64,000 bases of DNA from Tilletiopsis washingtonensis (lineage: Eukaryota; Basidiomycota; Exobasidiomycetes; Entylomatales): positions 1 to 64,000 of the forward strand of contig NW_020312000.1 in assembly GCF_003144115.1 (NCBI RefSeq), read 5' to 3'. The notes beneath the pieces were generated by a model. It ran no database searches and was not told the origin of the DNA. It was given only the letters and a program-made list of their open reading frames with translations. The position numbers and the translations under genes are program-made. Positions within the stretch are counted from its first letter, which is position 1. The number at the start of each line of letters is the position of its first letter. This document shows positions 62,286 through 63,746 of the stretch, in pieces.

Positions 62286-63746
62286 CTACACCTGGTTCGC
62301 CAGCGGGCTCGGGCCCTTTTCCCGCGAGGGGCTCTTCTGCGGCAGGCCGCCTTCTGTTGACGGCACCGGCAGCGGCGCGAAGAAGTTGGCCGGCGACGGC
62401 GGGTCGGGCTTGGTGTACGAGCTCGTCGGGCCGGGCCCGCTGCTGCTGGCGCCGGCGCCGCCCTGCCGTTGTGCGAGCGAGCGGTAGGGCTGCGTGGTGT
62501 CGAAGCCGTGGTCAAAGAGCGACGAGATCGACTCGCCAAAGTGCGACCGGCGGATCGCTTCGGAAAGCATCCCAGAAATGTCCATCTGGGCGAGGCGTGA
62601 GCAAGGCGGTCAGGTCTGCGGCGCGCATGGTGCTGCTCACCTCCTCAATCTTCGGGCACAGCGCGCGATTCGCGGCCTGCGGCAGCGTGTTCGTCACGAC
62701 GATCTTCTCCAACCGCGAGGCATTCAGCCTGGTCGTTGCCGGCGTGCTGAAGAGGCCGTGCGTGACAATGGCCAGGACGCGCTCGGCGCCGCTCTCTGCC
62801 AGGCGCTGGGCGGCAAGGTCCAGCGTGCCGCACGTGTCGGCCATGTCGTCGACGAGGATGGCAACCTTGCCCTGCACGTCGCCGACCAGCACCATGCGCG
62901 AGACCTCGTTGGCCTTCTTGCGCTCCTTGTGGAAGAGCGCAAAGTCGACCTCCAGCCGGTCGGCCAGCGACGTGGCGCGCTTCGCTCCTCCTGCGTCCGG
63001 AGACACAATGACGACCTTCGTGCAGTCCACGTACTCGCGGATCCACTGCAGTGCGGTCGGCTCCGCGTAGAGCTGCGAAGATTGTGAGCACCGCGAAGAC
63101 ATGGATTGCACATCAGCAACTTACGCTGGGACCGACGTGAAAAGGCACGAGAAGACCAGCGGTCAGGAGGCGCAGACAGAGAGCTATGCGGCCCCACTCA
63201 CTTGTCGACGGGCACATTGAAGAAGCCCTGGATCTGCGACGCGTGCAGGTCCATCGTCTACGCCGAGCACGGGCATCAGTGTTGGCTGCACCAGGTCGCT
63301 CGTGGCTATGCGCTCTTCGCTGCTCTGAAGCGCCTCGCTAGCTCTGCTTCCCGCTCTCGCCGCCAGGGCAGCCTCTCTCTGCACCCCTCATGCCGCACTG
63401 CCTGCTCACAATGACGTGGTCGCAGCCGGCGTTCTCGATCATGTTGGCAATAAGCTTGGCGGTGATGGGCGCGCGGCTCTTGTCCTTCTTGTCCTGGCGC
63501 GCGTAGAAGAAGTGCGGGATGACGGCGGTGATGCGCTTGGCGCTCGCCGTCTTGCAGGCGTGGATCATGATGAGCAGCTCCATGAGCGACGTGTTGGGCG
63601 ACGCCGCCGAGCCCGATGGCGTCGGCGACACGCACGACGTGTTGATGATGTAGACGTCGTGCTCGCGCACCGACTCGGCAATGCGCACAATCGACTCGCC
63701 CGCATCGTTGCGCGTCACCGTCGCACGGCCGAGCGGCTGTCCAAGG
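62286..63746 (-). CDS. Ribose-phosphate pyrophosphokinase, 5'-partial
   Basis: Makes PRPP from ribose-5-phosphate and ATP for nucleotide synthesis. Visible exons are 63410-63746, 63202-63257, the single base 63125, 62641-63072 and 62286-62585, 375 codons including the stop. Motifs: [83 protein letters not shown], the PRPP loop [15 protein letters not shown], and [19 protein letters not shown] family-unusual insert, [17 protein letters not shown], sits after YIIN. The C-terminal 70 residues are Pro/Ser-rich. The N-terminal exon (with the SGNSHPEL-type region) lies beyond 64000. Confidence 0.93.
63125..63125 (-). other. Single-nucleotide microexon of the pyrophosphokinase gene
   Basis: One base (C on the minus strand) is flanked by a good acceptor (CGGTCCCAG) and a perfect donor (GTAAGT). 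The preceding exon ends GAC AA and the next begins CTC TAC, so only the extra C gives Asn in the family motif VDNLYAEP and keeps the frame. The introns on each side (63126-63201 and 63073-63124) have normal sizes of 76 and 52 nt and CTGAC or CTGAT branch motifs. Confidence 0.8.

What the first reader, a model, noticed from the sequence alone, without database searches (positions are those of the whole stretch)
63073..63201. A one-nucleotide exon in the ribose-phosphate pyrophosphokinase gene
Sequence shows: the exon at 63202-63257 ends in phase 2 (GAC AA) at GTGAGT, while the exon at 62641-63072 must start in phase 0 (CTC TAC GCG). In between stands CCCAG-C-GTAAGT. Inserting that single C gives VDNLYAEP, the near-invariant family motif; direct joining gives a frameshift. 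Established knowledge: single-nucleotide exons are known but very rare, with one case described in plants. A fungal case in a core metabolic gene would be new to me. Recursive splicing at the CAG-C-GTAAGT site is an alternative mechanism with the same product.
Basis: partly seen in the sequence, partly recalled or inferred. Interest (0 to 1): 0.85.

Follow-up and report, generated by a model that had tools for sequence, protein, structure and literature searches.

The report
One-letter exon in fungal PRPP synthetase
A basic metabolic gene of the yeast-like fungus Tilletiopsis washingtonensis contains an exon only one DNA letter long, and gene models and transcript-like sequences from mushrooms and related fungi suggest that the same tiny exon is old, widespread and missed by many annotations.

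Summary
Observation confirmed. On the minus strand the PRPP synthetase gene of Tilletiopsis washingtonensis has exon 3 (63257-63202, ends GAC AA), a 76-nt GT-AG intron, a single C (63125), a 52-nt GT-AG intron, and exon 4 (63072-62641). With the C the gene encodes 400 aa with VDNLYAEP; without it the frame breaks. No single intron with any termini gives VPVDNLYAEP; the only two-intron solution found that does uses this C. The deposited model instead drops V-D-N.

Two extensions. (1) At this place 93 of 137 genome-derived models deviate from VDN, against 1 of 103 transcript-like sequences. Most deviation types follow from one layout, GACAA|GTRNGT...AG|C|GT...AG|CTC, in Agaricomycetes, Tremellomycetes and Ustilaginomycotina; this rests on protein letters, since no DNA of relatives could be read. 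(2) The same genome holds further candidates: Rieske protein and thiolase (well supported), FIT protein (likely), COQ5 (probable), one unconfirmed.

One-nucleotide exons are known (plant APC11 and VPS55; Fusarium CYP621A, 2026), so this is a new member of a known kind, apparently old and not alone. No RNA of this species was available.

The parts
63410..63746 (-). exon 2 of the PRPP synthetase gene (exon 1, 64120-64044, lies just beyond the window)
   Evidence: open frame and homology
63202..63257 (-). exon 3, encodes [18 protein letters not shown] and ends AA (phase 2)
63126..63201 (-). intron upstream of the 1-nt exon, 76 nt, GTGAGT...CCCAG
63162..63166 (-). branch-point-like CTGAC, its A 37 nt from the end of the 76-nt intron
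63125..63125 (-). one-nucleotide exon C, third base of Asn-157
63073..63124 (-). intron downstream of the 1-nt exon, 52 nt, GTAAGT...CGCAG; CTGAT and CTCAC as possible branch sites
62641..63072 (-). exon 4, starts CTC TAC (phase 0)
62286..62585 (-). exon 5 with the stop codon
63204..63209 (-). donor GTCGAC implied by the deposited model P0001, which lacks V-D-N

Best explanation
The C at 63125 is a one-nucleotide exon. Two ordinary short GT-AG introns (76 and 52 nt) flank it, each recognised across the intron. Because the factors at the AG and at the GT would overlap on a single nucleotide, the introns are most likely removed one after the other: removing the first joins AA to C and leaves GACAAC|GTAAGT as donor for the second, or the reverse. 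The mRNA then reads GAC AAC CTC TAC and the product is a normal PRPP synthetase. Shown: sequence, frame logic, uniqueness of the solution, and the contrast of gene models and transcript-like sequences in relatives. Inferred: the splicing itself in this species, the order of steps, constitutive use, and that relatives share the same C exon.
For: Frame and exhaustive enumeration; consensus splice sites and branch-like motifs; intron-free paralogue with the predicted junction; the 400-aa product scores higher than the deposited 397-aa model (NF002320 372.9 against 355.8 bits, TIGR01251 353.2 against 339.2) and aligns without a gap through VDNLYAEP to human PRPS1; 93 of 137 genome-derived models deviate from VDN but only 1 of 103 transcript-like sequences; in the first 201 proteins residue N157 deviates in 67 of 106 models against a median of 1 over 187 conserved columns; four deviating models are 100% identical outside the site to a transcript-like sequence reading VDN.
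Against: No RNA of this species was available: the cluster of P0001 lists only ncbi, uniref and nr sources. The deposited model uses another, open solution. A bare AG-Y-GT in an intron of this size is not rare by chance. DNA of relatives could not be read, so their 1-nt exon is inferred from protein letters; 44 of 137 models read VDN and may lack one or both introns; P0217 (VDKHCC) is not explained.
Confidence: 0.95

Rival explanations
1. One 137-nt intron runs from the donor GTCGAC (63209) to 63073 and the protein lacks V-D-N, as in the deposited model.
For: P0001 has exactly this product and the frame is open; 20 of 137 genome-derived models of relatives show the same loss.
Against: The donor GTCGAC differs from the five donors of this gene, which are all GTGAGY or GTAAGT; it leaves the good donor GTGAGT unused; V-D-N is present in 102 of 103 transcript-like relatives, the other reading VDS; the product scores lower. 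The lost residues correspond by my count to V142-D143-N144 of human PRPS1, where V142L and N144S are reported changes (PMC7403961, passages).
Confidence: 0.02
2. Recursive splicing: the CAG-C-GTAAGT site is a ratchet point and intron 1 is always removed first, with the same product.
For: Perfect GTAAGT after the C; the donor is rebuilt as GACAAC|GTAAGT after the first step (inference).
Against: A strict recursive site leaves no nucleotide between AG and GT; here a C is kept. Nothing in the sequence fixes the order, and the reverse order is equally possible.
Confidence: 0.35
3. One intron with unusual ends, or a stwintron (an intron that splits a splice element of another), so that no 1-nt exon is needed.
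For: Stwintrons are described in ascomycetes (search listing only). For four of the five other candidates in this genome a one-intron GT..CA or TG..AG reading would give the same residue.
Against: For PRPP synthetase no one-intron solution with any termini gives VPVDNLYAEP. Neither intron interrupts a splice element of the other.
Confidence: 0.01
4. Assembly error or pseudogene: a base is missing from the sequence at an exon border.
For: Only one assembly was seen.
Against: The gene is otherwise intact over 400 codons; the same place is disturbed in many independent genome annotations while transcript-like sequences are regular; similar 1-nt exons are needed in other genes of this genome.
Confidence: 0.01

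Closest known systems
1-nt exon of APC11 in land plants (PMC4674806, part 1 of 3 read; PMC8831610, passages)
   Same: One nucleotide between two introns, needed for the frame, missed by annotation; lost together with the introns in some lineages.
   Different: Plant gene; shown by cDNA and mutated reporter constructs. Ours is a basidiomycete gene and rests on sequence comparison.
1-nt exon of VPS55 in land plants (PMC8831610, passages)
   Same: Conserved over a long time, with a GTRAGT donor behind it.
   Different: Has isoforms and paralogues with and without the exon; no isoforms are known here.
1-nt exon of cytochrome P450 CYP621A in Fusarium (PMC12940212, parts 1 and 2 of 3 read)
   Same: Fungal, inside a conserved motif, nearly all deposited transcript models wrong there, found by frame logic and supported by reads.
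   Different: One genus of ascomycetes and a rarely expressed P450; here a core metabolic enzyme in another phylum, with signs of conservation across two subphyla.
Stwintrons (search listing)
   Same: Two consecutive splicing reactions within one short stretch.
   Different: As the abstracts put it, an internal intron splits a splice element of the external one; here neither intron splits the other and one nucleotide stays in the mRNA.
Single-base exon of mitochondrial cox1 in placozoans (PMC5436844, search listing)
   Same: Exon of one base.
   Different: Mitochondrial gene, not a nuclear spliceosomal one (recalled).

Membership tests
single-nucleotide exon of a spliceosomal gene | one nucleotide flanked by AG and GT of two introns with ordinary splice signals | tested here: met
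single-nucleotide exon of a spliceosomal gene | the nucleotide is needed for the frame and no other solution restores the conserved protein | tested here: met
single-nucleotide exon of a spliceosomal gene | presence of the nucleotide in the mRNA of this species | not testable with these tools
   no transcript of T. washingtonensis was found; transcript-like sequences of relatives read VDN in 102 of 103
single-nucleotide exon of a spliceosomal gene | conserved in relatives | tested here: inconclusive
   protein-level signatures agree; DNA of relatives not available
recursive splice site (zero-nucleotide exon) | AG directly followed by GT, nothing kept in the mRNA | tested here: not met
   a C lies between AG and GT
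stwintron | an internal intron interrupts donor, branch point or acceptor of an external intron | tested here: not met
   both introns have complete ends of their own
ribose-phosphate pyrophosphokinase | full-length family match of the spliced product | tested here: met
   TIGR01251 E 9.1e-106 over residues 8-326; human PRPS1 chains E 5e-122

The most novel reading that the evidence does not exclude
The C exon of PRPP synthetase was already present in the common ancestor of Agaricomycotina and Ustilaginomycotina and has been kept since in many lineages, and it is one of a recurrent class in these fungi: this genome alone carries several more (Rieske protein, thiolase, FIT protein, probably COQ5) that pipelines would be expected to miss or distort.
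Probability: 0.75. Interest if true: 0.75.

Novelty: new member of a known kind. Interest (0 to 1): 0.67.

Why it matters
It carries the smallest possible exon from two plant genes and one ascomycete P450 to a core enzyme in another fungal phylum, with signs of long conservation and of several such exons in one genome. That makes it testable how a spliceosome that pairs sites across short introns handles a one-nucleotide exon, and how such exons arise and last. There is also a practical fault: 93 of 137 genome-derived models examined deviate at a place where 102 of 103 transcript-like sequences agree. The error signatures described here could serve to look for other 1-nt exons from protein databases alone.

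Tried and rejected
Searches for PRPP synthetase DNA of relatives: exact patterns in viral contigs (nothing) and genome contigs (nothing; four bacterial records, not used). Motif counts in the own genome are on the whole not enriched over the reversed-pattern control (6 against 5; 48: 0 against 0; 52: 16 against 11; 53: 18 against 20; 62: 8 against 16; 63: 10 against 2; 64: 61 against 33), so a motif match alone proves nothing and only frame and homology decide. The 52 loci went through a frame script and 12 of the first 34 were printed in detail. PRPP synthetase, Rieske, COQ5, thiolase, FIT and L039 stood out; L035 is better read as an 8-nt exon and L049 as a 22-nt exon; L056 is unclear; I judged the rest by eye to be ordinary exon ends or unresolved. 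L017 was read from the matched letters only. L039 has long open frames on both sides but no Pfam match and stays unconfirmed. COQ5 is only probable: its last residues are not covered by the alignments, and reading on into intron 2 would end the protein after WKG. Literature searches for a basidiomycete case listed none that I recognised as such; the library holds open-licence papers only.

Rejected explanations: weak-donor single intron, unusual single intron or stwintron, assembly error or pseudogene (see rivals).

Full report
WHAT IS THERE. The window is positions 1-64000 of a 963,047-base contig of an 18.7-Mb genome in 32 contigs. The best protein hit, P0001, on a contig of the same length, is named Tilletiopsis washingtonensis (Basidiomycota, Ustilaginomycotina, Exobasidiomycetes, Entylomatales). 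On the minus strand lies a complete PRPP synthetase gene with exons 64120-64044, 63746-63410, 63257-63202, 63125, 63072-62641 and 62585-62286, and introns of 297, 152, 76, 52 and 55 nt with donors GTGAGT, GTGAGC, GTGAGT, GTAAGT and GTGAGC. With the C at 63125 the frame is 400 codons and carries VDNLYAEP; without it the frame shifts.

IS IT FORCED BY THE SEQUENCE? Between exon 3 and exon 4 a script found 22 single GT/GC-AG introns of at least 35 nt that keep an open frame through exon 4; none gives VPVDNLYAEP. With any termini (introns of at least 30 nt) there is still no one-intron solution. Of two-intron GT-AG solutions with an inner exon of 1-30 nt two are open; both use the C at 63125; one restores VDNLYAEP, the other also removes LYAE. 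The C is the only AG-N-GT in the 129 nt. In 20,000 shuffles of the intron interior, with both halves at least 45 nt, any AG-N-GT occurred in 1,562, AG-Y-GT in 1,274, YAG-Y-GTRNGY in 49 and YAG-Y-GTRRGT in 5. CTGAC lies 37 nt before the end of the first intron; CTGAT (40 nt) and CTCAC (12 nt) before the end of the second. The family search found two PRPP synthetase loci in the genome; the other has no intron here and reads GTCGACAACCTC.

WHAT THE DEPOSITED MODEL DOES. P0001 is 397 aa and lacks exactly V-D-N, which fits the donor GTCGAC at 63209. It scores lower than the 400-aa version: 355.8 against 372.9 bits for NF002320, 339.2 against 353.2 for TIGR01251. By my count on the alignment these residues are V142, D143 and N144 of human PRPS1; a review mentions V142L as possibly touching the allosteric and ATP sites and lists N144S in relapsed leukaemia (PMC7403961, passages).

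THE SAME PLACE IS DISTURBED IN RELATIVES. Three protein searches (the best 120 of about 7,990 hits each) gave 256 different proteins. I sorted them by source: 137 genome-derived models (rows with ncbi or nr; four of these clusters, P0102, P0112, P0208 and P0211, also hold lgn contigs; two rows are named as animals and one as a fern), 16 from other contigs over 2.5 kb, and 103 from short contigs (one, P0055, without contig data), which I call transcript-like. That label is inference: for the 102 with a length, the non-coding remainder has a median of 216.5 nt, and 19 have less than 129 nt; all 19 read VDN. Between FFxVP and LYxEP the 137 models read VDN 44, VDK 34, nothing 20, VDKW 10, VDKY 7, VDKC 4, other 18; the 103 read VDN 102 and VDS 1; the 16 read VDN 16. 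Fisher's test gives 5e-31, but rows are related and not independent. Control on the first 201 proteins: residue N157 deviates in 67 of 106 models and 1 of 81 transcript-like sequences; among 187 columns with one residue in at least 95% of the transcript-like set the next worst has 24 and the median is 1; inserts after residue 157 occur in 28 models and in none of the 81.

ONE LAYOUT EXPLAINS MOST OF THE ERRORS. Suppose the gene reads GACAA|GTRNGT ... AG|C|GTRAGT ... AG|CTC. Slipping the first donor by four bases reads AAG TRN: K, then only Y, C, W or a stop; all 21 models with one extra residue after K have Y, C or W. Taking the C as a mismatch puts a G from GT or AG in its place: K, 34 models. 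A GTNGAY donor drops V-D-N: 20. Running the 1-nt exon upstream into intron 1 makes the last codon AG plus C or T, a Ser before LYAEP: 8 (P0129, P0135, P0142, P0219, P0221, P0226, P0228, P0234). Running it downstream reads C GTN AGY, N-V-S: 3 (P0145, P0165, P0197). Running exon 4 upstream makes its last codon NAG, here Q: 2 (P0025, P0150). Joining directly gives the frameshift N-C: 2 (P0239, P0251). Remaining are P0041 (exon skipped), P0132 (VDKCYAEP) and P0217 (VDKHCC); I have no good account of the last. These add up to the 93. The classes were drawn up after seeing the strings, and the codons are inferred from protein letters. Kwoniella shandongensis appears once without V-D-N (P0218, needs AG|CTN) and once with Ser before L (P0221); an exon between two acceptors satisfies both. 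Affected are Tilletiopsis, Tilletia and one Malassezia; Tremellomycetes such as Cryptococcus, Kwoniella, Naematelia, Naganishia, Papiliotrema and Phaffia; and many Agaricomycetes (names; groups partly recalled, partly). Against a universal exon: 44 models read VDN, among them many Ustilaginales and Malassezia; whether they lack introns here or are annotated correctly could not be seen.

TRANSCRIPTS AGAINST MODELS. Outside the site four deviating models are 100% identical to a transcript-like sequence that reads VDN: Pleurotus ostreatus PC15 P0164 (VDK) to P0095, 317 residues; Postia placenta P0127 (VDK) to P0131, 317; Leucocoprinus leucothites P0135 to P0122, 317; Cryptococcus neoformans P0217 to P0207, 325 (which printed the 45 closest of 93). 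The contigs are unnamed; common species is inferred from identity.

NOT ALONE IN THIS GENOME. Motif scans, none of which is clearly enriched over its control except (10 against 2, where no convincing case came up), were followed by frame analysis of 52 loci. Rieske protein (C17:360048-360114:-, L018): CTTGG|GTGAGT...CCGCAG-C-GTAAGT...CTGCAG|TGTGTG restores CTHLGCVPIG and aligns without a gap there to solved Rieske proteins. Thiolase (C11:341139, L027): a G restores PMGITAEN and aligns through the junction with 4c2j (Ala at that residue) and 8k1c (Gly), with a one-residue gap a little upstream. FIT-family protein (C8:555536, L023): a T; the Pfam FIT match, residues 65-164, spans the junction at residue 140 by my count. 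COQ5 (C18:61120, L019): a G gives WKGMKL-stop; probable only. L039 (C5:562275): a G; no Pfam match. In these five the 1-nt exon is the only two-intron GT-AG solution found; for FIT there is no one-intron alternative, for the other four an unusual one-intron reading such as GT..CA or TG..AG exists. The stretch between the outer exons is 117-139 nt in the five and 129 nt in PRPP synthetase. Sixty-one further motif sites were not followed.

HOW IT MOST LIKELY WORKS. Two short introns, each recognised across the intron, removed one after the other, with the C carried as an exon end between the steps. Skipping the C would join the outer sites and shift the frame. Order and efficiency are not shown.

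PLACE AMONG KNOWN THINGS. One-nucleotide exons are established in plant APC11 (PMC4674806, part 1 of 3) and VPS55 (PMC8831610, passages) and in Fusarium CYP621A (PMC12940212, parts 1 and 2 of 3), whose authors call theirs the first in a fungal gene. New here are the gene, the phylum and the apparent age; the kind is not new.

Noticed in passing
L018, minus strand (G000:C17:360048-360114): Rieske iron-sulphur protein gene with a C as 1-nt exon inside the CTHLGC motif.
   Followed up: yes
L027 (G000:C11:341139-341188): Thiolase gene with a G as 1-nt exon in PMGITAEN.
   Followed up: yes
L023, minus strand (G000:C8:555536-555580): FIT-family gene with a T as 1-nt exon; no one-intron alternative.
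   Followed up: partly
L019 (G000:C18:61120-61197): COQ5 gene with a probable G as 1-nt exon before the last four codons.
   Followed up: partly
L039 (G000:C5:562275-562303): Unidentified gene with a possible G as 1-nt exon between two long open frames; no Pfam match.
   Followed up: partly
L035 (G000:C25:72347-72388) and L049 (G000:C13:532224-532271): Sites better read as exons of 8 nt (TCGTCAGC) and 22 nt; microexons may be common in this genome.
   Followed up: no
P0217, Cryptococcus neoformans: Model reads VDKHCC before LYAEP, not explained by the layout that fits the other models.
   Followed up: no
P0130 (short contig, 1139 bases): The one transcript-like sequence without Asn: VDSLYAEP.
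   Followed up: no
P0038: Protein named as from the fern Adiantum nelumboides is 86% identical to the query and looks like a fungal contaminant of that genome.
   Followed up: no
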